Assembly: GCA_025526935.1 (NCBI GenBank)
Contig: JAHLKD010000040.1
Location: 339,501 to 403,500, forward strand
Direction: 5' to 3'
From: Cladochytrium replicatum
Lineage: Eukaryota > Chytridiomycota > Chytridiomycetes > Cladochytriales > Cladochytriaceae
Length of the DNA: 64,000 nucleotides
Both the position numbers and the translations under genes were made by a program. Below the pieces are notes generated by a model. It was not told the origin of the DNA. It searched no databases and saw nothing but the letters and a program-made list of their open reading frames with translations. Shown one piece after another: positions 31,968 through 61,812 of this stretch; position 1 is the stretch's first letter; every line of letters starts with the position of its first letter.

Positions 31968-31969
31968 TT

Positions 31970-35516: not shown

Positions 35517-35691
35517 TAAGGATCGGCGGGTTTTAGGGTCTTTCGGGTCGGGTCCGGGTCCATTGACTAAATGTACCCGACCCGAGTGCCGGGTTTTCAT
35601 GGAAAATTTTCGGGTCGGATCCGGGTCGGGTATCGGGTCCAGTAGGAAAACCCTTCTCGGGTCAAAAGTCAGACCCGAGTAAAACCCGATG
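35517..35691. repeat. GGGTC/GACCC-rich terminal arm (transposase side)
   Basis: Irregular, partly self-complementary GGGTC, CGGGTC and ACCCGA motifs packed directly inside the terminal repeat. Equivalent arms occur at 54021-54151 and, inverted, at 61630-61812. Confidence 0.85.
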
Positions 35692-35726
35692 TGATAGAGA
35701 ATCTAAAACGAAGCTATTGTTCTTTC

Positions 35727-36520: not shown

Positions 36521-36634
36521 GTCACAACGGAAGTTCTGTAACAAACAATTTCTACCACGACAGACCTCGAGAGCTGTGCTTTCTGTGCACCTGGACATTA
36601 GAGTCGGTAACGTTCCAGCCACACCACAGCAAAA

Positions 36635-39069: not shown

Positions 39070-39106
39070 ATATAAATTGTTGTTTAGACTGTTCATCTGT
39101 TGAAGT

Positions 39107-40325: not shown

Positions 40326-40362
40326 GAGACTGAGTGTCACTGTGTCTGTCTGGGTAGAATAG

Positions 40363-40597
40363 GATTCTGTCCCCCCGGACACTTTCTCAACTCATTGACG
40401 GTACTTCAGTAATTTCTATCAGGTACAGCTAACCTCTCTATTAATGTTACTAGCAATAAGATTCTGTCCACCCGGACACTTTCTCAACTCATTGACGGTA
40501 CTTCAGTGATCTCTATCAAGTACAGCTAACCTCTCTATCAATTTTACTAGCAATAAGATTCTGTCCTCCCGGACAGAATCCTCTCTATCAATGTTAC
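40363..40597 (+). repeat. 97-bp minisatellite, short forward block before the companion gene
   Basis: About 2.5 units in forward orientation, separated from the reverse block by a short spacer (AAATCTGGGAGACTGAGTGT...). It ends in a CTGTCCTCCCGGACAG palindrome just ahead of the companion-gene upstream region. Confidence 0.9.
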
Positions 40598-40742
40598 TAG
40601 CCAGTTTCTTCCCTAGCTTATTATTATTTTCAGATCGGGTAGAAAACTATAGTGTCAGGGAAGTATTATAGCATACATTCCTGTAACATTCCGGCTAAGA
40701 ACACCGGGCCAGTATCTTCCCACGACAAACAGTACAAACACC

Positions 40743-42426: not shown

Positions 42427-42560
42427 TTGCTCAGTGGAGTTTTGTTTCTTTTTACGATAGTGTTTCTAAAATACACACTGTCCACACAGACACAAAGTGT
42501 TCATGTAAATATCCGTGGTCTAACTCAAAATTCAATCAATCCTCTCCTGGGCAGCAAAAA

Positions 42561-42726
42561 CCCGGCGGGTCAGGGTCGGGTACGGGTTTCAACCACTTCG
42601 GGTCCGGGTATTCCCTTTGTACCCGTCAGTGACCCGGCGGGTCCCCAGACAAACACGACCCGACCCAAAGGGTTTGGTGCGGGTCGCCACTGAAACCCGG
42701 ACCCGACCCGGACCCGCCGAACCTTA
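42561..42726. repeat. GGGTC-rich terminal arm (companion-gene side)
   Basis: ACCCG/GGGTC motifs ending at the terminal repeat. Equivalents lie at 60530-60653, 33320-33490 (inverted) and, decayed, 30831-30960. The copy at 60530 is about 40 bases shorter. Confidence 0.85.
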
Positions 42727-42884: not shown

Positions 42885-44370
42885 TGTCAAATACTTCGAG
42901 AAAATCTGCAATATCGGCCATGTCCTTCCAGAATAGATCATCAATGCTGGTCCCTGGAGGCACTTCATCTTGAAGTTTTTTATCAGCATTAACCAGTAAT
43001 TCAATTGCCTTGTTAAGTACTGGTGTCAGATAATTGATTCTTCCCGATCCCCAATCTTCACTGCATAGAATTACCAAGCAGACCCTCAATGCCGTCACCA
43101 TCATTGTGTAAGTTGAGTTCCAGCAAGTTTCATTATCCAGCTGCAGTTTGTTGTACTTTTGACGGGACTGCTGTGGAGTGTCCATCATGGTTTGCTCATG
43201 CAACAATTTCAATTTTTCTTGCTTCTGCGGAGATAATCGAATCTTGACAATGATGTGTCGAAGCTATATGAGCAATAAATCGAATCAGTCAAATGTGCAA
43301 TATTTACACCTTTACGTACTTACAACATCTACTCCGTCCTTGATAACTGTAAGGCATTGCTTGGAGACCAAATTAATGATATGTGCAAAGCATCGGACGA
43401 ATGTGCGGCTTGCAGGCAGCTCAACATTTTGTGAGTGGCCTGTCTCTTGTAAAGCTTCCGTAAACGTTTCGTTGTTCGAAGCATTATCTGCTGTGATCCA
43501 GCCGATCTAATAAACAAACTGTAAGGATATCATGATCGAAAGTTGAGCGGTCAAGGAAATCTTACCTTTTCAAAAAGATTATATTCATCGATAAAGGACA
43601 CAAATGCATCCCGAATTGCTTTGCCTGTATGGCGTCCATGGGCCTCCTTGAAACCAAGAACACAAGCACAAAGTTTCCAATCTGAATCAATCCAGAGGCC
43701 GGTGACTCCAATGAAAGGTTTCCCTGACTTGCTCATCCACATGTCTTACCCTCTGATTTGTTGTCGAACTACCCTCACTGCTAGTGCTGAGCTTGACAAT
43801 GATCTGCGTGAAGTATTCAGCTTGCGTCGTTTACGATTGCGGGAGTTGTTCTGGGTTTCCCTCTCACTTTCAAGCGGTGAAGATGTTGATGAACTTTTAT
43901 CAGTATCCTTTGGATCTTCATTGTAGATGTTGCCCTTATTTTGTTGTTCTTTCGATCTATTTGACCTGTATCCTAGGTAAGTCAAGTATCATTACAAGCC
44001 TGAAATTCCTACTTACCTCCTTTTTTCTTTTGGCATTTGCTTGATGTCTACCTCAAATTACAAGAACAATCAATAAAGTCCAAGTTACAGCACAAACTGT
44101 TTAAGGGGGAATCGGGAGTGTAAGAGTATTAACGTTGGGTGGGGAGTCTGGAAACGTATTACGACCCACAATATTTGACAAATATTTGCCCAAGCCTTGC
44201 CGCCAATTTGCCAAATAGGTAGGTACCATTTGTATTTGACAAATTGGCACCCCTATTTGCTCAAATCACATTTGAGCAAATCAGGGAGCTCCCCTCGATT
44301 TGACTTGCGCAAATAAGTGCAAATAAAATTTGACAAATCAAATAAACAATTTGACTCGTGGCAGACCCTG
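42885..44370 (-). mobile_element. hAT-2 element, truncated at its 3' end
   Basis: On the minus strand, from terminus CAGGGTCTGCCACGAGTCAA (44370) inward, the pieces read WMSKSGKPFIGVTGLWIDSD, GWITADNASNNETF, FVRCFAHIINLVSKQC, QLDNETCWNSTYTMM and NKAIELLVNADKKLQDEVPP. These are the DNASNN, FAHIINL and WNSTY blocks of a hAT transposase unlike the composite-element transposase. Several introns or lesions separate the blocks. The C-terminal dimerisation region and the second terminus are absent; the left edge abuts companion-gene sequence. Confidence 0.82.
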
Positions 44371-44838
44371 AAGAAGAGTAAGGTTGCTCCAAGCACTGCT
44401 ACTTGAAGTTGATATTTGGCTTGAGCAGTCATCTGATTCAACAAATATGGGCTGTAAGAACTGATTTCGGGAGAGGACTTTGTAGTTAACGTTGACGTAC
44501 TTTGATTGATGGTGGAAGAGACGGCAATTTAAGGTAATAAATAACTCATGATCTTATGCATCTGGAAGCAGATACCCTGGATGACCTCTTTCACCAAAAG
44601 GATAGCCGTACGACGGGGCTGCTGCAGGCTAAGCAATACAAGGGAACTCGTTGGAGAACTGGTTTGATGAACCTTTGGAATTCTACCAATCCCCTTGATA
44701 GCCGACGATATGCTCATTGGGCCACCTGTTGATGTTGCCGCCGCAGGTGCTGCAGCTTCTGAATGACCAGCCTGTCGTTTCAGAGCAGCAAGCTCTCCCT
44801 CCAGGGTGGTCACACGTGATTTCCATTGTGAAATCTCC
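44371..44838 (-). pseudogene. Companion-gene fragment of the older inverted element
   Basis: Encodes SRVTTLEGELAALKRQAGHS and onward, C-terminal to the coiled coil, with many substitutions. It is joined directly to minisatellite at 44839, so the N-terminal half is deleted, and it is cut by the hAT-2 terminus at 44370. Confidence 0.85.
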
Positions 44839-45520
44839 TAAGTTGAGAAAGTGTCTGGGTGGACAGAATCTGGGAGACTGAGTGTCACTGTGTCTGTCTG
44901 GGTAGCAATAGGATTCTGTCCACCGGTACTTGAGTGATCTCTATCCAATATAACTAACCTCTCTATCAATGTTACTAGCAATAGGATTCTGTCCACCCGG
45001 ACACTTTCAACTCATTGATGGTACTTCAGTAATCTCTATCAGATACAGCTAACCCCTCTACAAATACTACTAGCAATAGGATTCTGTCCCAGACACTTTC
45101 TCAACTCATTGACGGTACTTCACTGATCTCTATCAAGTACAACCAACCTCTCTACAAATACTACTCGCAATAGGATTCTGTCCACCTGGACACTTTCTCA
45201 ACTTCTTAACGGTACTTCAGTGATCTCTATCAAGTACAACTAACCTCTCTATCAATGTTACTAGCAATAAGATTCTGTCCACCCAGACACTTTCTCAACT
45301 CATTGACGGTATTTCACTGATCTCTATCAAGTACAACCAACCTCTCTGTCAATATTACTAGCAATAAGATTCTGTCCACCCGGACACTTTCTCAACTCAT
45401 TGACGGTACTTCACTGATCTCGATCAAGTACAACCAACCTCTCTACAAATACTACTCGCAATAGGATTCTGTCCACCTGGACACTTTCTCAACTCCTGGA
45501 CGGTACTTCAACAGATGAAC
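44839..45520. repeat. 97-bp minisatellite of the older inverted element
   Basis: About seven diverged units, mostly forward (CTGTCCACCCGGACACTTTC) with a reverse piece at the left edge. It leads into the reversed 3' end of the transposase gene. Confidence 0.88.
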
Positions 45521-45596
45521 AGTCTAAACAACAATTTGTATTTAAAAGAGTGGGTTATCATCAGTTGCTTCCAACTCTAATACCACATCAAAATCC

Positions 45597-46195
45597 TGTT
45601 AAGTATTTCGATTGATGGACTTGGCCAATCCAGTCATTGATAGTACAAAAACACAAACGCCCGATATACAGAAATGTCACTCTTCACTGAGCAACATTTC
45701 TAACTATTGAACTAAAGCATATAGATGATGATCTATTACGAGTTTGGATACCTCCGGGTATTTCTTCATGGGTTATATTTATTGCGGCCATAGGTATAGT
45801 AAACTGTCATTACTTTTCTATCATCCACTTGTAGAAGTGAAGCCCGGATCAGATCACAGCAAAGGTTTACATATGATTAACGCGTTCGTGGGAATCATGT
45901 GTGAGAACAATCCTGTTGAGGAGAGCTAGATCTCACGCACAGCTTAGCATGATTATGCTTCGCTACGCCTGTGAGAAGAAGAGTCAAACCTTATCGCTTC
46001 GATCCAGATCTTCCGGAAGGAAAAGCCAAAACGACAGTACACTTATTTAAGGAGCCTGTGGCGATACACACAAGGAGCATTCTCTTGCGCTAGTACTTGT
46101 GACTCGCAATCTTCTTTATTCATCTCTTAGAAACATTAACCCGTGAATTAGCAACACACACAACCTGAGGATCCAGACCACAGCTTTGTTCAACA
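45597..46195 (+). repeat. 5' LTR of the complete copia element
   Basis: 599 bp, starting TGTTAAGTATTTCG and ending GCTTTGTTCAACA. Contains the element promoter by position. A 61-codon frame inside it recurs in every LTR copy and is not a gene. Confidence 0.95.
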
Positions 46196-46246
46196 CAATA
46201 GTTACGAATCGTTGCTTAACACATTTCTTTGGACAACAACGACAAG

Positions 46247-49200
46247 ATGGGTTCAGGATCGAATGACGCCACATCTTCGCGGCCGAAGCCATTCACCGGT
46301 AAAACGCTGCAGGATTTCGATCTGTACATGGAACAAGTGCAGACTTACGCAAACTTACGTGGCGGCGCTGGCACTATGCTTCTCCAAGAACCAATGGCTC
46401 TTCCTGATAGTCCGAATTACGAGGCGGAAGGAAATCGCCCACAGCGTCCGATAGTCATCGCCGGAGCTGCTGGCGGAGCTGCTAACGAAGCACGAGCACA
46501 ATGGGAAGCAGAACTACGTGAACATTTGGCGATCGTCACACACAACAGTCACTTACGTACGCAATATCGTGCTGAGATGCAAGATTACCGTGCACAACAA
46601 GCGGACAATAACGTCGCAGTTGGAATTCTATGCGAATGTTTCCCAAAACGCGACATGAATCGAGTCAGAGCTTATGCGTCAGCAAAAGGCAAAGTCGATG
46701 GACTTCGCCGAATTTTCAGTGCTGGCGGTCAAGCTCCGATCGAATCGTCTATGTGGGAGCAACGGCTGGTAGATCTGAAATGTACGAACGGTCAGTCGGC
46801 AGAAAGCGTTCAGCAGTTTGTGACCGACCTCACTGAGTTATTCGAACTCAAACTGAACTCTTTACCGGACGAACTCGTAATCAAGGATCTACTAAACCGG
46901 TTAGTCGCAAAAATCACGATGCAGACAATTGAACTACGGACCCTTGTACCTTTTCTCGGAAAAATGATCACTTCTGCGTATGCCGAATGGGAACCGGCGT
47001 TAATACAAGATCCAATTGATGCTGCAAACCCGAATGCTCCGCGACCATTCCACCAAAAGCCAACGCATTACTTCGAAACAGTGTCAAATATCTTGACCGA
47101 CCTCAACCAATTGGTCCAACTCAACGTCACCATGGATGCCGGTGGGCCGAATGGGACAAAGAAGGCCATGAAGGCAAAGGCGAAGAAAGCGAAGGCGAAA
47201 GCGAAAGCCAAGGTTGCGAAGTCGGAGGATATTTGTACCTTGCATCCGAACTCATCTCACACCAATGCTCAATGCCGTAAGCAGGGTGCCTCGGGTGGCT
47301 CAGGCAGTAGCGGTGGGAGTAGCAGTTCCACTCGGACCAGGCAGTCGCAGGACTCCAGGTCGTCCACATCTTCTTCTGCAAAGAAGACAGATCTCACATG
47401 CAATTTCTGTGGCAAACGAGGACACAAGCAGTCGGCGTGTAAACGCTATCTCACTGCAAAGAGCCTTTGTTTAGACACGGATTTTCGTGCATTCATTGCC
47501 AGCCGTGGCGATGCAGGTGATGATTCGTCGGAGGACGAATCTACCGCCAAACCGGTGTTGACCAAGAAGGTAATCTTTGACCTTACCCAACCTACTTCTG
47601 TTGATAAAGATGCTGACACATACATCGGAAATATGTTTTCGATAGTGAACGCACACTCGGCACAGAAGGTTGTCCGTGTACATGTTCAAGCAAAGGATCG
47701 TGTGGGTTTGCTTGATACAGGCGCAACTGTTTGGATGACACCTAATCGTCATGCCTTTAGTTCGCTGACGTATACGAATGACGAGGACGTGGTGGAACTA
47801 GCGGATAGTCATACAATTCCAGTTTGTGGTTTTGGAGATGTATCTGTAGTTTTACCCAATGGGCGAATTAAGATAATACACAACGCACTTTATGTTCCTG
47901 ATCTCGAAGACACACTTGCATCAGTGTGTAGTATCATTGGAGACTCCGGGGACATTGTGAGTTTCACCAAAGACAAGGTTATCCTCACGCATGGTGATAC
48001 GGATGAACACGTTATTATTGGGCGACGGGAAAGAGATTTGTACTATCTCTATGCTGATGTTAGTACCGTCGGAACTCACCAACCGCGGCATGCGATTGCT
48101 CAACGAGCTAAAGCAGTAGCGGTATCCGCAGAAGGTCTCGATCAGTCGATGGACTTTACGTCCGGTGTACGATCTTCTCACGCGATGGGTCTCGATGTAA
48201 TGTCAGACAACAGCATTCGCCAAACGAACGATGATGAATGTCAACGAGCATCTCAAGATACAGTTGGAGTGAGCACCAACTTATCGCCAGTGACAGTACA
48301 CAAACTTGCAAAGTTACACCAGCAGTTTGGTCACATCCACTTACGGACGATCTTTCGAACGGCAGAGAAGCTCAACATCAAAATGCCCAAGGTTGAACCG
48401 GATGCATTCAATCTTGTCAACAAATCAATTATGCAGAATTGTTTGGTCTGTAGTCGCACGAAGCTGAAGCAGAAGCCGATTTATTCTACAATAAGTCGAG
48501 CTCCGAGGAAACTTTTCCGTCTGTTTTCCGATGTCGTACGTTTAATCTACGACGGACAGAAGAAGAGATATTGGCAGATCATTGTCGACGAACAACCTCG
48601 TTTCATCACAATCTACTTCCTGAATCGAAAGAGTGATGCGGTGGATAGTATGATTCGACATATCGCTGATGTGGAAAATCGCAATCACCCATTACACGTT
48701 GCTGAACTACGTTCCGATTCAGGAGAATTGATTACTAAACGGTTGATCCAATGGTGCAATACCAAGATTCCTCGCATCCGCGTCCACCCAGCTCCTCCGT
48801 CAGTAAAGGAACTCGATGGTCTATCAGAGCGGAATATACAATCGATCAAGTATATGTCGGACGCGATGCTGCTACAAGCTGGACTACCACGAACACTTCA
48901 ATTTGTGCAACTCTCCATCCTATACGCTGCGGTCTTCAAGAACGCTACTTTCCATTCAGCTGTGAATGCGATTCCGTACTGTGCTTACCTTGACAAGCGG
49001 ATAGATTTGGCAACTATCCACGCCTTTGGAACACTCGTTAGTTTGTGGATCTCACACGAACAAAGGTTGGCGCGCAGAATCCGAGACAAGTCTGAACTAG
49101 GTCTGTTTCTCGGATACAAGGGTGAAGACCTGAAGATCGTCATAGCACTCAATTTTCGGACAAACACAATAGGCGAATACTTCCATGTTACGTTCCACGA

Positions 49201-51430
49201 GGGAGTTTTTGTTGGTTATAATCCTACCCGACAGTTACTCGACGATCTTACGGTACAATATCCACTGAAGGCCGGGACATATTTCGATGTTGATCAAATA
49301 CCAACCGGGGATCAGGGGGTGCAAGAGACGACTGTTGAGTTTGTCTCAGACAATTTCCCGATTTCTACCGTTGCAGACGAAGAAATCGATGAGGATATAA
49401 ACGACGACCCCATATATTACCGCTTAGAAGAAGCCGGTGACATGCATGTTGTTGAACATTTACATGGACTAGACGATGATGACCCAGACGATGCTGATTA
49501 TGATCCAAATGCTGATTTATCGACTCCACAATCCATTACTGAAGAATCTCCGAATTTGTCTTCCGTATCTCCTGTAGAGGAATATGATGCACAACTCGAA
49601 AGTGATCTTCAATTCATTGGAGAAGATGTCGACGAAGCGTATGCAGCAAGAAAACGAAAACGTCAAGCAAGTGCAAATTTGTCGAACGCCAAAAGGAAAC
49701 AAAATTCCTTGTTTACCCGGTCCGTTCCTAATATCGATTGGACCCTGAAGGCCGATTCCTCATATCCAACACAACCAATTGCGAATGGAAATATACGGAC
49801 TGCACCAAAGACTCTTCGTGAGGCTTTATCACGATCCGATGAGGCTCCATTCTGGTTAGCGGCGATGAAGGAGGAAGTTACACAACTAGTCGGCAACAAT
49901 ACTTGGGCCGAAACGTTTTTACCTGATGGACGGAATTTATTATCGGGCAAATGGGTTTTCACATATAAGCTTGACGAACATGGCAATATTACTCGATTCA
50001 AAGCACGTTGGGTCGTACGAGGATTTTCACAGATTGAAGGATTGGATTTCGATGAAACCTATTCTCCAGTTACGAAAACGTCCACGATCCGTTTTCTGAT
50101 TGCATTAGCACCATTAGTCGGCATGACCATATTCCAGTTTGATATCAAGGGTGCATATCTCAATGCAATACTGGAAGAAGAGAACTACGTCGAACTCCCT
50201 CATGGTTTCGGACGAGTAGATTTCCGGAATCGACCCATCGTCTGCAGACTTATCAAAAGTCTGTACGGTCTACACCAGGCAGCTCGAGAATGGTACAAAA
50301 CTCTTTGGAAACAATATCTCAGTGTTGGTTTCGTGCGGAATATTGCAGACATCTGTCATTTCTGGCGATACAATCCAACAAATAATACCCGCGAACACAC
50401 TACCGTTCATGTCGATGATATACTACATTTTTCCACAGATCCAAACGCATATCATCGGTTTCAGACCGATTTGGAAACTTCGTTCACAGTAGGCAGTACT
50501 TCGAAGGCGAAATGGATTCTGAAAATGGAGTTATTGCAGACAACGGAAGGATATTTCCTTAGCAATGCATTGTACGTAAAGAAGATTCTCGAAGAAGCGA
50601 ATTTATGGGGTACCAACATCAAACCGACCAAAACACCGATGTCAAAATCATATATCTTTGATGAGACCACACCAACACTGTCCGATGCCGAGGCAACACA
50701 ATTTCGATCAATGTTAATGAAGATATCGTACGTGGCGACTAAGACACGACCGGATATTTCATACGCAGTCAATATTTTGGCACAACATCAGATTGATCCT
50801 CGACAGTCAGAATCAAAGGCTCTCTATCGATTACAACGATATTTACTCGGTACTTGGGATTACGGTTTACACTATACACGGACTGGTATCACGTCTCCGA
50901 TGCTAAGACCCGACGGTCTCTACATGTTTGATTCGGCTAACAACCCACAAGGTTATGCCGATGCAGACTGGGCGGGCGATGCAGATAGATACTCACGAAC
51001 CGGTTACGTGGTAATGTTCGCTAATGCGGCAATCAGTTGGCAGTCGATTCGACAACAGACTATTGCAGCCTCGTCGTCGGAAGCCGAACTGTATGCGCTG
51101 AACGAACTATCGCGTGAGATGAAGTGGATGAAAAATCTTATGACGGGTATTGGAATTACGTCGTTCAATCCGCTCCGTTTATGGCAAGACAATCAATCCA
51201 CCGAGTCTATCGCAAACAATCTGTTCAACAACAAACGGACCAAACACATGGACGTTCGCGAGAGATTTGTGAATCTCCAAGTTGAACAGAAACATCAGGA
51301 GTTACACCATATGGATACTTCTGATATGATCGCGGACATCTTAACTAAACCTCTTGGAAGTAAATTATACCTTAAACACAGGGGCTCGTTGGGGCTAGTC
51401 AGTCAGTCTTCACTTAATATACTATCTTGA
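46247..51430 (+). CDS. Copia gag-pol polyprotein, intact
   Basis: 1727 residues from ATG 46247. Domain order gag - zinc knuckle - protease - integrase - reverse transcriptase - RNase H defines Ty1/copia. The gag part has a Lys/Ala-rich stretch before the knuckle CNFCGKRGHKQSAC (about residue 385). Protease has LLDTGATVWM (about 487). Integrase has the HHCC finger (HQQFGHIHLRT ... CLVCSRTKLKQKP) and the acidic triad in LFSDVV, LRSDSGE and LSERNIQ. Reverse transcriptase shows RWVVRGFSQIEGLDFDETYS, FQFDIKGAYLNA and HVDDIL in place of the usual YVDD. RNase H has GYADADWAGD and SSSEAELYAL. The frame is unbroken, so the element may be autonomous. Confidence 0.96.
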   Translation: MGSGSNDATSSRPKPFTGKTLQDFDLYMEQVQTYANLRGGAGTMLLQEPMALPDSPNYEAEGNRPQRPIVIAGAAGGAANEARAQWEAELREHLAIVTHNSHLRTQYRAEMQDYRAQQADNNVAVGILCECFPKRDMNRVRAYASAKGKVDGLRRIFSAGGQAPIESSMWEQRLVDLKCTNGQSAESVQQFVTDLTELFELKLNSLPDELVIKDLLNRLVAKITMQTIELRTLVPFLGKMITSAYAEWEPALIQDPIDAANPNAPRPFHQKPTHYFETVSNILTDLNQLVQLNVTMDAGGPNGTKKAMKAKAKKAKAKAKAKVAKSEDICTLHPNSSHTNAQCRKQGASGGSGSSGGSSSSTRTRQSQDSRSSTSSSAKKTDLTCNFCGKRGHKQSACKRYLTAKSLCLDTDFRAFIASRGDAGDDSSEDESTAKPVLTKKVIFDLTQPTSVDKDADTYIGNMFSIVNAHSAQKVVRVHVQAKDRVGLLDTGATVWMTPNRHAFSSLTYTNDEDVVELADSHTIPVCGFGDVSVVLPNGRIKIIHNALYVPDLEDTLASVCSIIGDSGDIVSFTKDKVILTHGDTDEHVIIGRRERDLYYLYADVSTVGTHQPRHAIAQRAKAVAVSAEGLDQSMDFTSGVRSSHAMGLDVMSDNSIRQTNDDECQRASQDTVGVSTNLSPVTVHKLAKLHQQFGHIHLRTIFRTAEKLNIKMPKVEPDAFNLVNKSIMQNCLVCSRTKLKQKPIYSTISRAPRKLFRLFSDVVRLIYDGQKKRYWQIIVDEQPRFITIYFLNRKSDAVDSMIRHIADVENRNHPLHVAELRSDSGELITKRLIQWCNTKIPRIRVHPAPPSVKELDGLSERNIQSIKYMSDAMLLQAGLPRTLQFVQLSILYAAVFKNATFHSAVNAIPYCAYLDKRIDLATIHAFGTLVSLWISHEQRLARRIRDKSELGLFLGYKGEDLKIVIALNFRTNTIGEYFHVTFHEGVFVGYNPTRQLLDDLTVQYPLKAGTYFDVDQIPTGDQGVQETTVEFVSDNFPISTVADEEIDEDINDDPIYYRLEEAGDMHVVEHLHGLDDDDPDDADYDPNADLSTPQSITEESPNLSSVSPVEEYDAQLESDLQFIGEDVDEAYAARKRKRQASANLSNAKRKQNSLFTRSVPNIDWTLKADSSYPTQPIANGNIRTAPKTLREALSRSDEAPFWLAAMKEEVTQLVGNNTWAETFLPDGRNLLSGKWVFTYKLDEHGNITRFKARWVVRGFSQIEGLDFDETYSPVTKTSTIRFLIALAPLVGMTIFQFDIKGAYLNAILEEENYVELPHGFGRVDFRNRPIVCRLIKSLYGLHQAAREWYKTLWKQYLSVGFVRNIADICHFWRYNPTNNTREHTTVHVDDILHFSTDPNAYHRFQTDLETSFTVGSTSKAKWILKMELLQTTEGYFLSNALYVKKILEEANLWGTNIKPTKTPMSKSYIFDETTPTLSDAEATQFRSMLMKISYVATKTRPDISYAVNILAQHQIDPRQSESKALYRLQRYLLGTWDYGLHYTRTGITSPMLRPDGLYMFDSANNPQGYADADWAGDADRYSRTGYVVMFANAAISWQSIRQQTIAASSSEAELYALNELSREMKWMKNLMTGIGITSFNPLRLWQDNQSTESIANNLFNNKRTKHMDVRERFVNLQVEQKHQELHHMDTSDMIADILTKPLGSKLYLKHRGSLGLVSQSSLNILS

Positions 51431-51545
51431 ACGACCGGCTGGCGATGTCCATACAACTCACCTTTATTTCAATAGAATATCAACTTCAGCATTTACAGAA
51501 AGTTATGATCGGTTGAGTGATACTCTCGGTTGTACCTATCTAATG

Positions 51546-51557
51546 ACTGAGGGGGTG
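51546..51557 (+). other. Putative polypurine tract
   Basis: TGACTGAGGGGGTG lies directly before the 3' LTR, the position and composition of a plus-strand primer site. Confidence 0.6.
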
Positions 51558-52156
51558 TGTTAAGTATTTCGATTGATGGACTTGGCCAATCCAGTCATTG
51601 ATAGTACAAAAACACAAACGCCCGATATACAGAAATGTCACTCTTCACTGAGCAACATTTCTAACTATTGAACTAAAGCATATAGATGATGATCTATTAC
51701 GAGTTTGGATACCTCCGGGTATTTCTTCATGGGTTATATTTATTGCAGCCATAGGTATAGTAAACTGTCATTACTTTTCTATCATCCACTTGTAGAAGTG
51801 AAGCCCGGATCAGATCACAGCAAAGGTTTACATATGATTAACGCGTTCGTGGGAATCATGTGTGAGAACAATCCTGTTGAGGAGAGCTAGATCTCACGCA
51901 CAGCTTAGCATGATTATGCTTCGCTACGCCTGTGAGAAGAAGAGTCAAACCTTATCGCTTCGATCCAGATCTTCCGGAAGGAAAAGCCAAAACGACAGTA
52001 CACTTATTTAAGGAGCCTGTGGCGATACACACAAGGAGCATTCTCTTGCGCTAGTACTTGTGACTCGCAATCTTCTTTATTCATCTCTTAGAAACATTAA
52101 CCCGTGAATTAGCAACACACACAACCTGAGGATCCAGACCACAGCTTTGTTCAACA
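51558..52156 (+). repeat. 3' LTR of the complete copia element
   Basis: 599 bp, matching the 5' LTR. Followed by the AATCC target duplication. Confidence 0.95.
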
Positions 52157-52161
52157 AATCC

Positions 52162-54012
52162 TTGCCAAAACTATGCACCTTTACAAAATCCTCACTAACA
52201 TCACTTTTTGAATCTAGGGAATCATTTTTGAACGGTTCTTCAGCACTCAATTGATGCAACCAGTCATGACGGCACATCAACGCATTTATGATTCTTGGAG
52301 CAAGGCGGTTGCGAGTTGCAGGTACCAAATCAACCCCAGCTGAAAACTTTTGTTCGACTAGAGCGCTTGTTGCTGGTATTCCTAAATAGTCCATTGCCAT
52401 CTGGCTTAGGGCTGGAAAGTTCACATTTTCAACGGTCTTCCACCAGTCCATAATATTGATTGGCTTCCTATCAGAATCAATACCGCGGAGAACCTGATCG
52501 CCAAGATAGCGATCCAGCTCATCTTTTTCCTCAGGAATCTCTTCTTGCCAGATGAAAACGGATCTAATGGCTCTCAAGCGTTCAGCGTCCATTCTTTTCT
52601 GTTTATCACCGGAAGCTCCACTCAAATCGTGTCGACGTTCTGGCGTGTTTCCAAAAACATCGGCACCACTGTTCTTGATTTTCCGTGACTTATACGATTC
52701 CTCCCAGACTTTCCGCACTAGGGTGACCTGATCCCTTCTTACATCTTTCTCCCAAGCCTTTGAAAATCGATAATATTGATCCTTAAAACAAGGATCGAGT
52801 ACCGTAGCAACTGCTAAAGACAGACTCTTAGCGATTGAGTAATATATTCTCAGCTTATCTAGTGGATTTCGAAATGCTTTGGTGAAAGTTTCATCTAATT
52901 CTGCATCCTCTAGGTCCTCCAGTTGATCGATAAGATCGTTGTAAAATGGAATAACAAGCGGAAGTGTTGGATATCTAGACCCCTCGATTGCCTTTGATAT
53001 AACCTCGAAAACACTCAAACCATCCCGGATCTTCTGTCGGACCTCCCATTGCTTTGGATTTATTGACCAATCTTTCAAGGAATCTTCAATCCAGCATATT
53101 TTGTCCATTGCCTCTCGTAGCTGTAAGGCTCGTTTGACCATATAGATCGCGCTATTCCAGCGAGTTGTCACATCGATAATTGGTAATAGAGGAACCAGTT
53201 TCACAAATCGGCAAGAATCAATAAATGAGCTTTTTCGTTTTGGGGAAGACCGGATTCCTCTGACTAGCCGTCGAAGAAGGTTTATGACATTAACACTGGA
53301 GTTATTGTCATTTGCGACTGTGTCCCCTGCGGGCGTGAATGTATCGATAAAATCCTTTGCTGCAAGATTGATAATGTGTGCCATACACCGCATGTGTTGA
53401 GTTTCTGCAGACCACGCAATATCCCTATCTTCCAATAGTGTCACGAGCTTAGCACTCATGGTAAAGTTGTTTGAACCATTGTCGGTTGTAATGCACAATA
53501 AGCGTTCACCCGATAGCATGCCAAATTCATCCAGAAACTTGACAAGCTGATTAGCCATGGCGACGCCTTCGTGCTTTCCAACTATCGAAATCATCTGCAG
53601 CAGCAAGTCCTGCGGCTCCCATTCTTTCGTGATGAAGTGGGCAGTAATTCCAAGAAAAGAAATCTGGTTCTTCGATGTCCAACAGTCAGCTGATATTGAT
53701 ACTTTTGAAGGCGAACCAACAATCAGACCTTTAACGAGCTCCTTCTGCCTATTGTAAAGATCCATCTCCTTTTGCTTCACTGCTTTTGCCGTCTTTGGTG
53801 CATAGTTTGGCTGAAAAGTCTTCAGCATGCTGACAAAGAACTCGTTCTCCACAACAGTAAAAGCCTGATTGTCTGCAGCAATCCAGTCCAAAATTGACCG
53901 CCACGCTATGTCTGGATTGAACACAAAGTTTTGCTCCTTCTCCTGCGAGCCGAAATTCAATGTCTGTTGTCCCTTTGGGACAATGTCCAACAGTCCAAGT
54001 GACCTGGCAATA
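52162..54012 (-). pseudogene. Transposase gene of the older inverted element, middle part
   Basis: Open from about 53990 to the copia junction: 600-plus codons of hAT transposase colinear with copies 1 and 2, without the frameshifts those carry in this region. Its N-terminus was displaced to 60662-61177 by insertion of copy 2, and its last 20 codons to 45542-45591 by the copia insertion. The frame now runs past the junction into the LTR and stops at about 52077. This is the least damaged transposase core in the window. Confidence 0.92.
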
Positions 54013-54020
54013 CTTCCATG
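54013..54020. repeat. Target site duplication, left (CTTCCATG)
   Basis: CTTCCATG directly precedes the left terminal repeat of copy 2 and is repeated at 60654-60661. Eight bases is the hAT superfamily's target duplication length. Confidence 0.95.
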
Positions 54021-54188
54021 TAAGGATCGGTGGGTTTTAGGGTCTTTCGGGTCGGGTTTTCATGGAAAATTTTCGGGTCGGATCCAGGTCGGGTATCAGG
54101 TCCAGTAGGAAAACCCTTCTCGGGTCAAAAGTCAGACCCGAGTAAAACCCGATGTGATAGAGAATCTAAAACGAAGCTATTGTTCTTT

Positions 54189-54592
54189 CTGTCCACGCGG
54201 ACACTTTCCAAGAAGACGCAATATAAGTTTTGTATGTATCAAACAATTTTGCATCACAACGGACATCAAGGCATGTATTTTCTGTCCACCCGGACACTTT
54301 CTCAACTCAGTGACGTACTTCAGTTATCTCTACCCAATACAACTAACCTCTCTATCAATGTTACTAGCAATAAGATTCTGTCCACCCGGACACTTTCTTA
54401 ACTCATTGACGGTACTTGAGTGATCTCTATCAAGTACAAACTAACATCTCTATCAATGTTACTAGCAATAAGATTCTGTCCACCCGGACACTTTCTCAAC
54501 TCATTGACGTACTTCAGTTATCTCTACCCAGTACAACTAACCTCTATCAATGTTACTAGCAATACGATTCTGTCCACCCGGACACTTTCCAA
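54189..54592 (+). repeat. 97-bp minisatellite, forward block of copy 2
   Basis: About four units, half as many as in copy 1. Confidence 0.9.
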
Positions 54593-54709
54593 GAAGTCAC
54601 AACGGAAGTTCTGTAACAAACAATTTCTACCACGACAGACCTCGAGAGCTGTGCTTTCTGTGCACCTGGACATTAGAGTCGGTAACGTTCCAGCCACACC
54701 ACAGCAAAA

Positions 54710-57144
54710 ATGGACGCAGCCTTTGTTAAACCAAAGCGTAAGGCAGCGTCTGACGCAAGCCAAAGACTGGTGGACAGTCATCCGCTTGACACACGGAAGC
54801 GAAGTCTGCCAGCCCCCCAAATTTCAGAGGCGTCCAGCGAGGGGAACATCATGCAGGACAAACGCAGACGTGTATCAGGACACGGTGGCAACAACAGCGC
54901 TCGAGAGCCGAGCTCCACATCTTCTTCCAATGACTCCAGCGAGTTGGGCCCGGCTTCGCAGCATGCACCACAGCTTCCTGCCGACGTTAGTTTTGCTGAC
55001 TCTTCAGTGCGACAGGAGCCTGCAGCTGGATCAGTTCAACCATCAATGCTTTCATCAGACGCAGATGTTGATAGCATGTCGGACTGTAGAGGTAGTCAAG
55101 GCGGCATAGCGAAGGATTACTATAAGGTTGATAATGGTCTGAGAACATGTTTGGTTGCGAAATGCAAGTGGAGCCAGAAGGTCGATAAGACGGGATCAAC
55201 AAAAACTTCCTCCGGCATCTGAAAAACCACCATGGAAGTATTGCCAGGTCGCTTGGACTGTTGGACATCGTCCCCAAGGGACAACAGACATTGAATTTCA
55301 GCTCGCAGGAGAAGGAGCAAAACTTTGTGTTCAATCCAGACGTAGCGTGGCGGTCGATTTTGGACTGGATTGCTGCAGACAATCAGGCTTTTACTGTTGT
55401 GGAAAACGAGTTCTTTGTCAGCATGCTGAAGACTTTTCAGCCAAACTATACACCAAAGACGGCAAAAGCAGTGAAGCAAAAGGAGATGGATCTTTACGAT
55501 AGGCAGAAGGAGCTCATTAAAGGTCTGATTGTTGGTTCGCCTTCAAAAGTATCAATAACAGCTGACTGTTGGACATCGAAGAACCAGATTTCTTTTCTTG
55601 GAATTACTGCCCACTTCATCACGAAAGAATGGGAGCCGCAGGACTTGCTGCTGCAGATGATTCCGATGGTTGGAAAGCATGAAGGCGTCGCCATGGCTAG
55701 TCAGCTTGTCAAGTTTCTGGATGAATTTGGCATGCTATCGGGTGAACGCTTATTGTGCATTACAACCGACAACGGTTCAAACAACTTTACCATGAGTGCT
55801 TAGCTGGAGACGCTCTTGGAAGATAGGGATATTGCGTGGTCTGCAGAAACTCAACACATGCGGTGTATGGCACACATTATCAATCTTGCAGCAAAGGATT
55901 TTATCGATACATACGCGCCTGCAGGGGACACAGTCGCAAATGACGATAACTCCGGCGTTAATGTCATAAACCTTCTTCGACGGCTAGTCAGAGGAATCCG
56001 GTCTTCCCCAAAACGACGAAGCTCATTTATTGATTCGTGCCGATTTGTGAAACTGGTTCCTCTATTACCAATTATCGATGTGACAACTCGCTGGAATAGC
56101 ACGTTCTATATGGTCAAACGAGCCTTACAGCTACGAGAGGCAATGGACAAAATATGCTGGATTGAAGATTCTTTGAAAGATTGGTCAATAAATCCAAAGC
56201 AATGGGAGGTCCTACAGAAGATCCGGGATGGTTTGAGTGTTTTCGAGGTTATATCAAAGGCAATCGAGGGGTCTAGATATCCAACACTTCCGCTTGTTAT
56301 TCCATTTTACAACGATCTTATCGATCAACTGGAGGACCTAGAGGATGCAGAATTAGATGAAACTTTCACCAAAGCATTTCGAAATGCACTAGATAAGCTG
56401 AGAATATATTACTCAATCGCTAAGAGCCCGTGTTTAGCAGTTGCTACGGTACTCGATCCTCCTTTTAAGGATCAATATTATCGATTTTCAAAGGCTTGGG
56501 AGAAAGATGTAGGAAGGGATCAGGTCACCCTAGTGCGGAAAGTCTGGGAGGAATCGTATAAGTCACGGAAAATCAAGAACAGTGGTGCCGATGTTTTTGG
56601 AAACACGCCAGAACGTCGACACGATTTGAGTGGAGCTTCCGGTGATAGACAGAAAAAAACGGACGCTGAACGCTTGAGAGCCATTAGATCCGTTTTCATC
56701 TGGCAAGAAGAGATTCCTGAGGAAAAAGATGAGCTGGATCGCTATCTTGGCGATCAGGTACTCCGCGGTATTGATTCTGATGGGAAGCCAATCAATATTA
56801 TGGACTGGTGGAAGACCGTTGGAAGTGTGAACTTTCCAGCCCTAAGCCAGATGGCAATGGACTATTTAGGAATACCAGCAACAAGCGCTCCAGTCGAACG
56901 AAAGTTTTCAGCCGGGGTTGATTTGGTACCTGCAACTCGCAACCGCCTTGCTCCAAGAACAATAAATGCGTTGATGTGCCGTCATGACTGGTTGCATCAA
57001 TTGAGTGCTGAAGAACCGTTCAAAAATGATTCCCTAGATTCAAAAAGTGATGTTAGTGAGGATTTTGTAAAGGTGCATAATTTTGGCGAGGATTTTGATG
57101 TGGTATTAGAGTTGGAAGCAACTGATGATAACCCACTCTTTTAA
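54710..57144 (+). pseudogene. hAT transposase of copy 2, frameshift and nonsense
   Basis: Colinear with copy 1: the same N-terminal region, BED finger, hAT core and C-terminal dimerisation block. One A is missing in an A run at about 55203 (five A instead of six), which breaks the BED finger. A TAG at 55801 replaces AAG just after TTDNGSNNFTMSA. The frame from 55816 to the stop at 57144 is open and lacks the copy 1 frameshift. Copies 1 and 2 therefore carry different, independent lesions. Confidence 0.92.
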
Positions 57145-57174
57145 ATATAAATTGTTGTTTAGACTGTTCATCTG

Positions 57175-58290
57175 TTGAAGTACCGTCCAGGAGTTGAGAA
57201 AGCGACCACCTGGACAGAATCCTATTACAAGTAGTATTTGTAGAGAGGTTGGTTGTACTTGATCGAGATCAGTGAAGTATCAGTGAAGTACCGTCAATGA
57301 GTTGAGAAAGTGTCCGGGTGGACAGAATCTTATTGCTAGTAACACTATTAGAGAGGTTAGCTGTACTTGATAGAGATCACTGAAGTACCGTCAATGAGTT
57401 GAGAAAGTGTCCGGGTGGACAGAATCCTATTGCTAGTAGTATTTGTAGAGAGGTTAGCTGTACCTGATAGAGATTACTGAAGTACTGTCAATGAGTTGAG
57501 AAAGTGTCCGGGTGGACAGAATCGTATTGCTAGTAACATTGATAGAGAGGTTAGTTGTATTGGATCACTGAAGTACCGTCAATGAGTTGAGAAAGTGTCC
57601 GGGTGGACAGAATCCTATTGCTAGTAACATTGATAGAGAGGTTAGTTGTATTGGGTAGAGATCACTGAAGTACCGTCAATGAGTTGAGAAAGTGTCCGGG
57701 TGGACAGAATCCTATTGCTGGTAGTATTTGTAGAGAGGTTAGCTGTACCTGATAGAGATCACTGAAGTACCGTCAATGAGTTGAGAAAGTGTCCGGGTGG
57801 ACAGAATCGTATTGCTAGTAACATTGATAGAGAGGTTAGTTGTATTGGATAGAGATCACTGAAGTACCGTCAATGAGTTGAGAAAGTGTCCGGGTGGACA
57901 GAATCGTATTGCTAGTAACATTGATAGAGAGGTTAGTTGTATTGGATAGAGATCACTGAAGTACCGTCAATGAGTTGAGAAAGTGTCCGGGTGGACAGAA
58001 TCATATTGCTAGTAACATTGATAGAGAGGTTAGTTGTATTGGATAGAGATCACTGAAGTACCGTCAATGAGTTGAGAAAGTGTCCGGGTGGACAGAATCG
58101 TATTGCTAGTAACATTGATAGAGAGGTTAGTTGTATTGGGTAGAGATCACTGAAGTACCGTCAATGAGTTGAGAAAGTGTCCGGTGGACAGAATCCTATT
58201 GCTAGTAGTATTTGTAGAGAGGTTAGCTGTACCTGATAGAGATTACTGAAGTACCGTCAATGAGTTGAGAAAGTGTCCGGGTGGACAGAA
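57175..58290 (-). repeat. 97-bp minisatellite, reverse block of copy 2
   Basis: About 11 units in reverse orientation, including one shortened unit near 57560. Unit variants differ in order from copy 1. Confidence 0.92.
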
Positions 58291-58331
58291 ATCTGGGAGA
58301 CTGAGTGTCACTGTGTCTGTCTGGGTAGAAT

Positions 58332-58556
58332 AGGATTCTGTCCCCCCGGACACTTTCTCAACTCATTGACGGTACTTCAGTGATCTCTATCCAATACAAC
58401 TAACCTCTCTATCAATGTTACTAGCAATACGATTCTGTCCACCCGGACACTTTCTCAACTCATTGATGGTACTTCAGTGATCTCTATCAGGTACAGCTAA
58501 CCTCTCTATCAATTTTACTAGCAATAAGATTCTGTCCTCCCGGACAGAATCCTCTC
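58332..58556 (+). repeat. 97-bp minisatellite, short forward block of copy 2
   Basis: About 2.5 forward units ending at the same CTGTCCTCCCGGACAG palindrome as in copy 1. Confidence 0.9.
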
Positions 58557-58713
58557 TATCAATGTTACTAGCCAGTTTCTTCCCTAGCTTATTATTATTT
58601 TCAGATCGGGTAGAAAACTATAGTGTCAGGGAAGTATTATAGCATACATTCCTGTAACATTCCGGCTAAGAACACCGGGCCAGTATCTTCACACGACAAA
58701 CAGTACAAACACC

Positions 58714-60396
58714 ATGCCTCGAACTACAAAGAAGCGAGCGTTAAAACAATCCAGACCATCATCTGAAAGAGAATCAAGTGCAGAACCTGTGACTGCACCT
58801 GAAACATCTCTGGCATCGGGTTCTGAAGTGGAAGAAGCAGAAGTTGGCCTTGATGTCAAATCGACAGATGTCAAATCGACAGCTCCTTCAAAGAAACCGG
58901 CGCGACGTGGTACTAAAGGGGATGCTGACTATTTGCTCATCGACGGACTCTGTCCTGCTTCAGACATACGACTTTGGTATCGAAAATTCAAAGCGAGCGG
59001 CCACAGCTACGACTCGGAGGACTTCATCAGCAACTGTCAAACAAATCGTGATGAATGCGGCCCAAGATTTGTTCTTCAAGGGTTGATCGACCGACTTAAC
59101 TCTGACAGCAAGCTAGTTCGTCAAGCCCTGAACGAAATTCATGATGAATGCAGTGGACGAACGGAGTTCATAACAGCAGCAAACGCCTATCGTATGGAGT
59201 GCTTGAAAAGCTCTTCCTTTCAGAAGGAAACAACATTTCTGGACTTTTACAGGCGGCAGGGACACAAGTACGGCATTTACAGAGGAATGCCCGTCACTGC
59301 AAAGGTTGACGAGTTCCAAGCGACCATCAAACGAGCAGATGAGGACCGTGAAAGGACAAAACAGGTCCTCAAACAGTCAGAACGACTGTTGAACATGACA
59401 AAAGATCTTGAAGAGACTGCAATGAACGAGAGAAGGACCCGCATCGCAGCAGAAGTGCGAGAGAAGGCTCTCATTGATGAATTGGGCAGGGCGGGTGCAT
59501 TGATTCAGCACGGCGAGCACGAAGAGCTAGCAAGATTCAGGGAGATCACCGCTGCAATGGAAAGGGAGAAGCAGGCAACTTCCCAGGAGATTTCACAATG
59601 GAAATCACGTGTGACCGCTCTGGAGGGAGAGCTTGCTGCTCTGAAACGACAGGCTGGTCATTCAGAAGCTGCAGCACCTGCGGTGCCAACATCAACAGGC
59701 GGCCTAATAAGCATATCGTCGGCTATCAAGGGGATTGGTAGAATTCCGAAGGTACATCGAACCAGTTCTCCAATGAGTTCCCTTGCATTGCTTAGCCTGC
59801 AGCAGCATCGTCGTACGGCTATCCTTTTGGTGAAAGAGGTCATCCAGGGTATCTGCTTCCAGATGCATAAGATCAATGAGGTTATTTATGACCTTAAATT
59901 GCCGTCTCTTCCACCATCAATCAAGTACGTCAATGTAAACTACGAAGTCCTCTCCCGAAATGAGTTTTTACGGCCCATATTTGTTGAATCAGACGACCGC
60001 TCAAGCCGAATATCAACTTCAAGTAGCAGTTCTCGGAGCAGCCTTACTCTTCTTAGGGTGCACATTTTGCTCGGAAACTGGATACGGCACAATAATTCGC
60101 TAAGTACGTCTGCCACTATCTATCGCATGTTCAGGGCATTAGTGGATGCTTATCCTTCTGAGTGGCTAAGGTTCTGGACAGCATACATCGGGCATCTTTC
60201 GTCCATAACGCTCCCTGAGGTGGATTGGAAACCTTGGAAGACAGGTTTAGCCAAGGATTTCATGCTTTCAAATGACGACATTGATCGGTTCATCAGGACT
60301 GGGTTGGCGAAGGACGTAACCAGTGGTGGATGGGACTCTGACGATATGAACCAGATACAGAAGCTGATTTGGGCTGTTCCACCTATCAACTTGTGA
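58714..60396 (+). CDS. Companion protein of the composite hAT element, intact, function unknown
   Basis: A 560-residue open frame. Residues 1-75 are Ser/Lys-rich with basic clusters (TTKKRALKQSRPSS, KKPARRGTK) that could direct it to the nucleus. Residues 75-200 form an acidic/polar region with spaced Cys (GLCPASDIRLWYRKFKASG, NCQTNRDECGPRF, DECSG). Residues of about 205-335 are strongly heptad-like coiled coil (TKQVLKQSERLLNMTKDLEE, VTALEGELAALKRQ). The C-terminal 220 residues look globular (IKGIGRIPKVHRTSS, ILLVKEVIQGICFQMHKINE, VLSRNEFLRPIFVESDD, WIRHNNSLSTSATIYRMFRA, DVTSGGWDSDDMNQIQKLIW). I recognise no known family. It is part of the element: full or partial copies occur seven times here, always beside the same arm or minisatellite. 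A role as accessory or regulatory factor for transposition is inference. Confidence 0.85.
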   Translation: MPRTTKKRALKQSRPSSERESSAEPVTAPETSLASGSEVEEAEVGLDVKSTDVKSTAPSKKPARRGTKGDADYLLIDGLCPASDIRLWYRKFKASGHSYDSEDFISNCQTNRDECGPRFVLQGLIDRLNSDSKLVRQALNEIHDECSGRTEFITAANAYRMECLKSSSFQKETTFLDFYRRQGHKYGIYRGMPVTAKVDEFQATIKRADEDRERTKQVLKQSERLLNMTKDLEETAMNERRTRIAAEVREKALIDELGRAGALIQHGEHEELARFREITAAMEREKQATSQEISQWKSRVTALEGELAALKRQAGHSEAAAPAVPTSTGGLISISSAIKGIGRIPKVHRTSSPMSSLALLSLQQHRRTAILLVKEVIQGICFQMHKINEVIYDLKLPSLPPSIKYVNVNYEVLSRNEFLRPIFVESDDRSSRISTSSSSSRSSLTLLRVHILLGNWIRHNNSLSTSATIYRMFRALVDAYPSEWLRFWTAYIGHLSSITLPEVDWKPWKTGLAKDFMLSNDDIDRFIRTGLAKDVTSGGWDSDDMNQIQKLIWAVPPINL

Positions 60397-60529
60397 TTGC
60401 TCAGTGGAGTTTTGTTTCTTTTAACGATAGTGTTTCTAAAATACACACTGTCCACACAGACACAAAGTGTTCATGTAAATATCCGTGGTCTAACTCAAAA
60501 TTCAATCAATCCTCTCCTGGGCAGCAAAA

Positions 60530-60653
60530 ACCCGGCGGGTCAGGGTCGGGTACGGGTTTCAACCACTTCGGGTCCGGGTATTCCCTTTGTACCCGTCAGT
60601 GACCCGGCGGGTCCCCAGACAAACACGACCCGACCCGGACCCGCCGAACCTTA
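60530..60653. repeat. GGGTC-rich terminal arm of copy 2
   Basis: Shorter form of the arm at 42561-42726, ending at the terminal repeat. Confidence 0.85.
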
Positions 60654-60661
60654 CTTCCATG
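60654..60661. repeat. Target site duplication, right (CTTCCATG)
   Basis: Second copy of the octamer at 54013-54020. From here the interrupted transposase gene of the older element continues. Confidence 0.95.
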
Positions 60662-61177
60662 GTGGTTTTTCAGATGCCGGAGAAAGTTTTTTGTTGATCC
60701 TGTCTTATCGACCTTCTGGCTCCACTTGCATTTCACAACCAAACATGTTCTCAGTCCATTATCAACCTTATAGTAATCCTTCGCTGTGCCCCCTCGACTA
60801 CCTCGACATGCTATCAACATCTGCGTCTGATGAAAGCATTGATGGTTGAACTGATCCAGCTGCAGGCTCCAGCACTGAAGAGTCAGCAAAACTAACGTCG
60901 GCAGGAAGCTCTGGTGCACGCTGAGAAGCCAGGCCCAACTCGCTGGAGTCATTGGAAGAAGATGTGGAGCTCAGCTCTCAAGCGCTGCGCTGTTGTTGGC
61001 ACCGTGTCCTGATAGACGTCCGCGTTTGTCCTGCATGCTGTTCCCCTCGCTGGACGCCTCTGAAATTTGGGGGGCTGGCAGACTTCGCTTCTGTGTGTCA
61101 AGCGGATGACTGTCCACCAGTCTTTGGCTTGCGTCGGACGCTGCCTTACACTTTGGTTTAACAAAGGCGGCGTCCAT
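60662..61177 (-). pseudogene. Transposase gene of the older inverted element, N-terminal part
   Basis: Reads MDAAFVKPKCKAASDASQRL from ATG 61177 inward to FLRHLKNHHGS at the insertion point, with frameshifts and small deletions in the Ser-rich region (about 60780-60980). Confidence 0.9.
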
Positions 61178-61299
61178 TTTTGCTGTGGTGTGGCTGGAAC
61201 GTCACTTACTCTAAGTGTCCAGGTGCACAGCAAGCACAGCTCTCGAGGTCTGTCGTGGTAGAAATTGTTTGTTATAGAACTTCCGTTGTGACTTCTTGG

Positions 61300-61520
61300 A
61301 AAGTGTCCAGGTGGACAGAATCGTATTGCTAGTAACATTGATAGAGAGGTTAGTGGTACTTGATAGAGATCACTGAAGTACCGTCAATGAGTTGAGAAAG
61401 TGTCTGGGTGGACAGAATTGTATTGCTAGTAACATTGATAGAGAGGTTAGTTGTACTTGATAGAGATCATTGAAATACCGTCAATGGTTGAGAAAGTGTC
61501 CCGGTGAACAGAAAATACAT
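61300..61520 (-). repeat. 97-bp minisatellite of the older inverted element, 5' block
   Basis: About two diverged units plus partials, in reverse orientation as expected for the inverted element. Confidence 0.85.
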
Positions 61521-61629
61521 GCCTTGATGTCTGTTGTGATGCAAATTGTTTGATACATACAAAACATATATTGCGTCTTCTTGGAAAGTGTCTGTGTGGA
61601 CAGAAAGAACAATAGCTTCGCTTTAGCTT

Positions 61630-61812
61630 CCCTATCACATCCGGTTTTACTCGGGTCTGATTTTTGACCCGAGAAGGGTATTCCCACTGGACCCGATACC
61701 TGACCCGGATCTGACCCAAAAATTTTCCATCAAAATCTGGCACTCAGGTCGGGTACATTTGGTCAATGGACCCGGACCCGACCCGAAAGACCCTAAAACC
61801 CGCCGATCCTTA
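61630..61812. repeat. GGGTC-rich terminal arm of the older inverted element
   Basis: Inverted copy of the arm at 35517-35691, ending CCCGCCGATCCTTA at 61812, the element's terminus. Confidence 0.88.

What the first reader, a model, noticed from the sequence alone, without database searches (positions are those of the whole stretch)
54021..60653. Two-gene hAT transposon with built-in minisatellites and an unknown companion protein
Seen: 15-bp imperfect terminal inverted repeats, an exact 8-bp target duplication (CTTCCATG), a BED-finger hAT transposase gene, and a second 560-codon gene in the same orientation within the same borders. Known: the 8-bp duplication and the C-terminal dimerisation block define hAT, and hAT elements usually carry one transposase gene. 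Inference: this is an unusual hAT lineage with a captured or accessory gene, and its internal arrays belong to the mobile unit.
Basis: partly seen in the sequence, partly recalled or inferred. Interest (0 to 1): 0.9.

Follow-up and report, generated by a model that had tools for sequence, protein, structure and literature searches.

The report
Two-gene hAT transposon with palindrome arrays
A jumping gene of the hAT family carries, besides its usual cutting enzyme, a second gene of unknown type and long arrays of one palindromic DNA motif; here one copy has jumped into another copy of the same element.

Summary
Copy A (54021-60653, 6633 bp) has terminal inverted repeats matching at 13 of 15 positions and an exact 8-bp duplication. 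It interrupts the transposase gene of another copy, and its joined flanks match the uninterrupted gene in copy C. Copy C (35517-42726) has the same termini, both genes and arrays, so the two-gene unit is real. The companion lies next to the right arm in 4 of 4 long copies; the transposase lies behind the left arm in 3 of 3 copies with a readable start. All 59 TGTCC-N4-GGACA palindromes (up to one mismatch) lie in element copies; 0 of 46 in copies A and C are in genes. The companion matches nothing beyond coiled coils; evidence for selection on it is weak. No transposase here is intact, and copy C has no duplication. Fungal hAT elements with a second gene are in print, so this is a new variant of a known kind. 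Best reading: an accessory protein acting through the arrays, like VANC in plant VANDALs; inferred, not shown.

The parts
54021..60653 (+). Copy A, the element of the finding, 6633 bp
   Evidence: Termini and duplication
54013..54020 (.). Left target-site duplication CTTCCATG
60654..60661 (.). Right target-site duplication CTTCCATG
54021..54035 (+). Left terminal inverted repeat (13 of 15 positions match the right one)
60639..60653 (-). Right terminal inverted repeat
54190..54672 (+). Left palindrome array upstream of the transposase: 6 copies of TGTCC-N4-GGACA (at most 1 mismatch)
54710..57144 (+). hAT transposase gene, broken in this copy (open pieces 54710-55222, 55261-55803 and 55816-57144)
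57311..58287 (-). Middle palindrome array, about 97-bp units, opposite orientation, 10 palindromes
58339..58546 (+). Array upstream of the companion gene, 3 palindromes in the left-array orientation
58714..60396 (+). Companion gene, intact, 560 codons; coiled coil predicted about residues 194-313
60449..60462 (+). Single palindrome (1 mismatch) in the right arm
35517..42726 (+). Copy C, 7210 bp, both termini, both genes (both frames broken), arrays; flanks do not match (CCGGGTGG / CGAGAGAA)
44365..61812 (-). Copy B, interrupted by copy A and by a Copia element; left terminus at 61812, companion reduced to a fragment at 44365-44845, right end not found
33320..35516 (-). Copy D, right half: right terminus, companion (broken), part of the array
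30831..31990 (-). Copy E, remnant (left limit of the array read by eye): degenerate right terminus, C-terminal half of companion joined to array sequence

Best explanation
A hAT cut-and-paste transposon whose mobile unit holds two genes: the transposase, which cuts at the short terminal repeats and makes 8-bp duplications, and a companion coiled-coil protein of no known family. The unit also carries arrays of one palindromic motif, TGTCC-N4-GGACA, upstream of each gene, between the genes and once in the right arm. Shown: the unit, its borders, its repeated occurrence and nesting, and, within this window, the confinement of the motif to the element and (copies A and C) to its non-coding parts. 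Inferred, in falling order of confidence: the companion is kept because it serves the element; it forms dimers or higher oligomers through its coiled coil; it binds the palindromes on its own element, either to keep the element expressed against host silencing (as VANC does in plant VANDAL elements) or to help bring the ends together.
For: Exact duplication, termini and empty site. Second full copy with both genes between the same termini. hAT dimerisation domain, and similarity to Hermes transposase at E about 1e-9 over that region. Palindrome with at most one mismatch: 59 in the window against 2.12 expected from 100 dinucleotide shuffles, largest 6; 59 of 59 in element copies; 0 of 20 in copy A and 0 of 26 in copy C in coding sequence. 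The left array differs in length between copies (3.2 units in A, 7.2 in C), and units of the middle array are not collinear between A and C, as described for VANC targets (PMC5735166, passages). Companion pN/pS is 0.32 for A-C (7 synonymous, 7 non-synonymous, nominal P 0.03) and 0.42 for A-D (22 and 29, nominal P 0.002), near the value for the transposase A-C, 0.35.
Against: Nothing shows that the companion binds DNA: no DNA-binding domain was recognised and both structure models are poor (mean pLDDT 43.6 and 52.5). When units are chosen by their flanks, the palindrome arms are only slightly more conserved than the rest of the unit: 0.968 against 0.902 (38 units; 31 of 81 other columns do as well) and 0.935 against 0.875 (48 units; 40 of 96 do as well). 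With up to three mismatches to a 15-base version of the motif, 4 of 69 matches lie outside the element. The selection counts are small and the pairs are not independent: 6 of 10 companion pairs give P above 0.1, and on one piece of the transposase A-C gives 3 synonymous and 6 non-synonymous changes, P 0.34. The transposase could equally be what binds the palindromes.
Confidence: 0.5

Rival explanations
1. Captured passenger: the companion is a host gene picked up once and carried along without helping the element, like histone H3 in some fungal hAT elements.
For: Captured genes in fungal hAT elements are in print (PMC6710886, passages). No similarity of the companion to a transposon accessory protein was found in the libraries searched.
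Against: It is full length and intact in copy A, has an array upstream, and shows pN/pS below 1 between copies A, C and D. Whether the host has a homologue is unknown, because its genome could not be searched.
Confidence: 0.25
2. The palindrome arrays are binding or regulatory sites of the transposase itself, and the companion does something unrelated to them.
For: A BED-like finger in the transposase is weakly detected; hAT transposases are known to bind subterminal repeats (recalled). One palindrome lies within about 200 bp of each end (element positions 170 and 6429 of 6633).
Against: The terminal stretches carry a different repeated motif, GGGTCGG, closer to the ends; most palindromes lie far from the ends, around the genes.
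Confidence: 0.3
3. The arrays are ordinary minisatellites that grew by slippage inside the element and have no function.
For: Tandem units are dynamic and the palindrome is only slightly more conserved than the rest of the unit.
Against: One palindrome stands alone in the right arm without the rest of the unit (sequence), and the arrays keep off both genes.
Confidence: 0.25
4. The two genes are not one unit: the companion belongs to another element and the borders are accidental.
For: Copy C has no matching flanks, so rearrangement does occur here.
Against: Exact duplication and empty site for copy A, and copy C with the same termini and gene order.
Confidence: 0.03

Closest known systems
hAT7 elements with a TET/JBP gene in rust fungi (Kojima 2025, PMC12730594; abstract and passages seen)
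   Same: Fungal hAT-type transposase with a second gene inside the mobile unit
   Different: Those make 7-bp duplications and their second gene is a TET/JBP dioxygenase; here 8 bp, and the family searches gave no such match
hAT element carrying histone H3 in Pseudocercospora fijiensis (PMC6710886; passages seen)
   Same: hAT with 8-bp duplication and an extra gene between the termini
   Different: There the extra gene is a recognisable host gene whose copies were inactivated by RIP; here it is an orphan, intact in copy A
VANDAL elements with VANC anti-silencing protein, Arabidopsis (PMC5735166; passages seen)
   Same: Second protein plus a short motif in tandem repeats in non-coding parts of the element, varying between copies
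   Different: VANDALs are Mutator-like elements; no match to the VANC domains (DUF1985, DUF287) was listed here
MuDR (mudrA and mudrB) and Mutyl (mutB), as described in PMC6446971 (passages seen)
   Same: Two-gene cut-and-paste element with a companion of unclear or DNA-binding role
   Different: Different transposase superfamily
ToxhAT, a 14-kb hAT transposon of wheat-pathogenic fungi (PMC12506042; search listing only)
   Same: Fungal hAT carrying another gene
   Different: About 14 kb, with a cargo gene of another kind

Membership tests
hAT superfamily | 8-bp target-site duplication | tested here: met
   Copy A, CTTCCATG on both sides, empty site confirmed; copy C shows none; B, D and E each lack a recognisable end
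hAT superfamily | Short terminal inverted repeats | tested here: met
   13 of 15 (copy A) and 14 of 15 (copy C) positions match
hAT superfamily | C-terminal dimerisation region (PF05699) | tested here: met
   E 1e-20 in copy A, 2.4e-19 in copy B; similarity to Hermes transposase over that region
hAT superfamily | hAT RNase-H-like domain | tested here: inconclusive
   PF14372 at E 0.0008 (copy A, 20.0 bits) and 0.0022 (copy B, 18.7 bits) against a cut-off of 27; catalytic residues were judged by eye only
hAT superfamily | BED zinc finger (common, not required; recalled) | tested here: inconclusive
   zf-BED E 0.041, below the cut-off, with an 89-residue piece; none with the 493-residue piece
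TET/JBP-carrying hAT7 | 7-bp duplication and TET/JBP gene | tested here: not met
   8-bp duplication; no TET/JBP family listed for the companion (I did not check that the library holds it)
VANDAL/VANC | Mutator-type transposase and VANC domains | tested here: not met
   The transposase is hAT; no DUF1985 or DUF287 listed for the companion at E up to 1 (I did not check that the library holds them)
VANDAL/VANC | Element-specific motif arrays in non-coding regions | tested here: met
   59 of 59 palindromes in element copies, 0 of 46 in genes of copies A and C; tested in this window only
VANDAL/VANC | Anti-silencing activity of the second protein | not testable with these tools
   Needs an experiment

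The most novel reading that the evidence does not exclude
A hAT transposon has independently evolved a VANC-like system: a new coiled-coil protein that recognises a palindrome amplified in arrays around its own two genes, and so keeps its own copies active against host silencing.
Probability: 0.2. Interest if true: 0.72.

Novelty: new variant of a known kind. Interest (0 to 1): 0.45.

Why it matters
hAT elements are usually taken to need one protein (recalled). A second, apparently maintained gene together with an element-specific motif array would give another, independent case of the protein-plus-array design known from plant VANDALs, in a different transposase superfamily. It is directly testable with one protein and one short DNA probe.

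Tried and rejected
Whole-genome copy search: not possible, no genome is held for this window. Relatives: for the companion, 3 pattern matches in viral contigs and 31 in bacterial and archaeal genomes, none confirmed by tblastn; for the transposase piece, no pattern match in viral contigs. Single-protein queries find close relatives only, and these collections are not of eukaryotic genomes, so this says little. Companion family searches: Pfam listed 4 families at E 0.019 to 0.75, all below cut-off, mostly coiled-coil, and none for its two ends searched apart. NCBIfam listed HlyD E 1.6e-4 (20.8 bits, cut-off 208.65), SMC E 0.005 and one at 0.57. PHROGs listed a phage head scaffolding family E 4.7e-5, one at 0.015 and one at 0.1. 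All lie on or around the coiled-coil stretch, and I read them as coiled-coil similarity, not kinship. Solved structures: nothing better than E 0.78. Structure models of the companion (4 near-identical sequences, mean pLDDT 43.6) and of residues 67-229 alone (52.5) were too poor for a fold search, so none was run. A first conservation figure for the palindrome (0.95 against 0.72) was circular, because units were picked by the palindrome; one search replaces it. Shared sequence upstream of the two genes: only the palindrome, and 27 of 300 shuffles scored as well. Single-strand folding: the 97-bp unit is no more stable than shuffles (z -0.25); the left arm has z -2.53 and the right arm z -4.28. 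Papers: nine searches were answered; from titles and abstract starts, no listed paper names a hAT with such a companion. Passages were seen in four papers; a fifth, PMC6431247, held none of the terms asked. Only open-licence papers are held and Repbase was not searchable, so I make no claim that this element is absent from print.

Full report
Observation. Copy A runs from 54021 to 60653 (6633 bp) and is flanked by CTTCCATG on both sides. Its ends match as inverted repeats at 13 of 15 positions. The flanks, joined, read like the same place in the transposase gene of copy C, with one base different by eye. So copy A jumped into the transposase gene of another copy, B, which lies on the minus strand. 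This is stronger proof of the borders than the duplication alone.

Other copies. Blast of copy A against the window and a search for the terminal repeat show at least four further copies. Copy C (35517-42726, 7210 bp) has both termini, both genes and the arrays. Copy B has its left terminus at 61812, the transposase in pieces around copy A and around a Copia element near its 3' end (about 45597-52156, with AATCC on both sides; read), an array, and a 481-bp fragment of the companion. Copy D (33320-35516, minus) is a right half with terminus and companion. Copy E (about 30831-31990, minus) is a remnant with a degenerate right terminus (2 mismatches) and a diverged piece of right arm (69 bp, 84% identical). 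Two short companion fragments (42726-42884 and 61813-61881) are too small to place. Of the companion copies longer than 800 bp (A, C, D, E), 4 of 4 lie next to a right arm; of the transposase copies whose start can be read (A, B, C), 3 of 3 lie behind a left arm. Only copy A has a proven 8-bp duplication: the flanks of C do not match, and B, D and E each lack one recognisable end.

State of the genes. The companion is intact in copy A (560 codons), broken in C and D, and only partial in E and B. The transposase is broken in A and C and interrupted in B. No copy in the window is therefore autonomous as it stands, though A and C differ little (14 base differences in 560 companion codons, 16 in 809 transposase codons, indels apart).

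The transposase. The C-terminal dimerisation region is clear, and the protein resembles Hermes transposase over that region. The piece of copy B used for these searches (52077-53990, minus) runs into the Copia element at its very end, outside the matched region. The RNase-H-like domain and the BED finger are seen only below their cut-offs.

The companion. No family is recognised beyond coiled-coil similarity. The model gives long helices at 194-313, with pLDDT of 70 or more only at about 231-310, 57-68 at 191-230, and mostly under 50 elsewhere. Codon comparison of copies gives pN/pS of 0.32 (A-C), 0.42 (A-D) and 0.46 (C-D), nominal P 0.03, 0.002 and 0.006; the 7 pairs with E or B give 0.52 to 1.66, none with P under 0.05. 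The transposase gives 0.35 (A-C, P 0.04), 0.58 (A-B, P 0.03) and 0.69 (C-B, P 0.11); on the stretch of B's longer piece alone, 0.60, 0.56 and 0.63 (P 0.34, 0.045, 0.10). The pairs are not independent and the counts are small, so this is weak evidence of purifying selection on both genes alike.

The arrays. The roughly 97-bp unit holds the palindrome TGTCC-N4-GGACA. With at most one mismatch there are 59 in the window against 2.12 expected, and 59 of 59 fall in element copies. A looser search (up to 3 mismatches to a 15-base form) gives 69, of which 4 lie outside. In copy A they stand in four places: six upstream of the transposase, ten in the opposite orientation behind it, three upstream of the companion and one in the right arm. 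None of 20 in A and none of 26 in C lies in coding sequence. Array lengths and unit order differ between A and C. The spacer between the opposed arrays is inverted in copy B relative to A and C. The palindrome is not clearly more conserved than the rest of the unit. The ends carry another repeated motif, GGGTCGG. Copy A lacks 41 bp of the left arm and 43 bp of the right arm that copy C has (offsets; sequences).

How it most likely works. The transposase cuts at the ends and makes 8-bp duplications (established for hAT, recalled; the duplication is shown here). The companion is probably an accessory protein kept by the element. The placing of motif arrays around both genes resembles VANDAL elements, where VANC binds a short motif that forms tandem repeats in non-coding parts and causes loss of DNA methylation (PMC5735166, passages). 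It is a resemblance in design, not kinship: the transposase is of another superfamily and no VANC domain was listed. The palindrome could instead be bound by the transposase or have no function.

Known and new. Two-gene hAT elements are known in fungi: hAT7 with TET/JBP (PMC12730594, abstract and passages) and hAT with histone H3 (PMC6710886, passages). The companion here matches neither kind in the family searches. I file this as a new variant of a known kind. The organism was not identified; that it is a fungus is my impression from the neighbouring genes (EF-G-like GTPase, Sir2, Copia; families) and comes from no call.

Noticed in passing
42885-44373: Remnant of what looks by eye like a second, different hAT element (minus strand), ending in CAGGGTCTGCCACGAGTCAAAT-like sequence; the same terminus seems to occur near 32163-32300. 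No family search was completed on it.
   Followed up: no
45597-52156: Copia-type retrotransposon with a 1733-codon open frame and AATCC on both sides, inserted in copy B; its LTR start recurs at 61882, 62944 and 63156, and reversed at 62670.
   Followed up: partly
44868-44905: The spacer between the opposed arrays is inverted in copy B relative to copies A and C, as if the opposed arrays had recombined.
   Followed up: partly
35509-35516 and 42727-42734: Copy C has intact termini but unmatched flanks from two different element fragments, which suggests recombination between copies or an aberrant transposition.
   Followed up: no
31844 and 44845: In copies E and B array sequence is joined directly to the middle of the companion gene at different points, as in internal deletion derivatives.
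   Followed up: no
60514-60653: The right arm folds as single-stranded DNA far better than shuffles (z -4.28), perhaps owing to its opposed GGGTCGG repeats.
   Followed up: no
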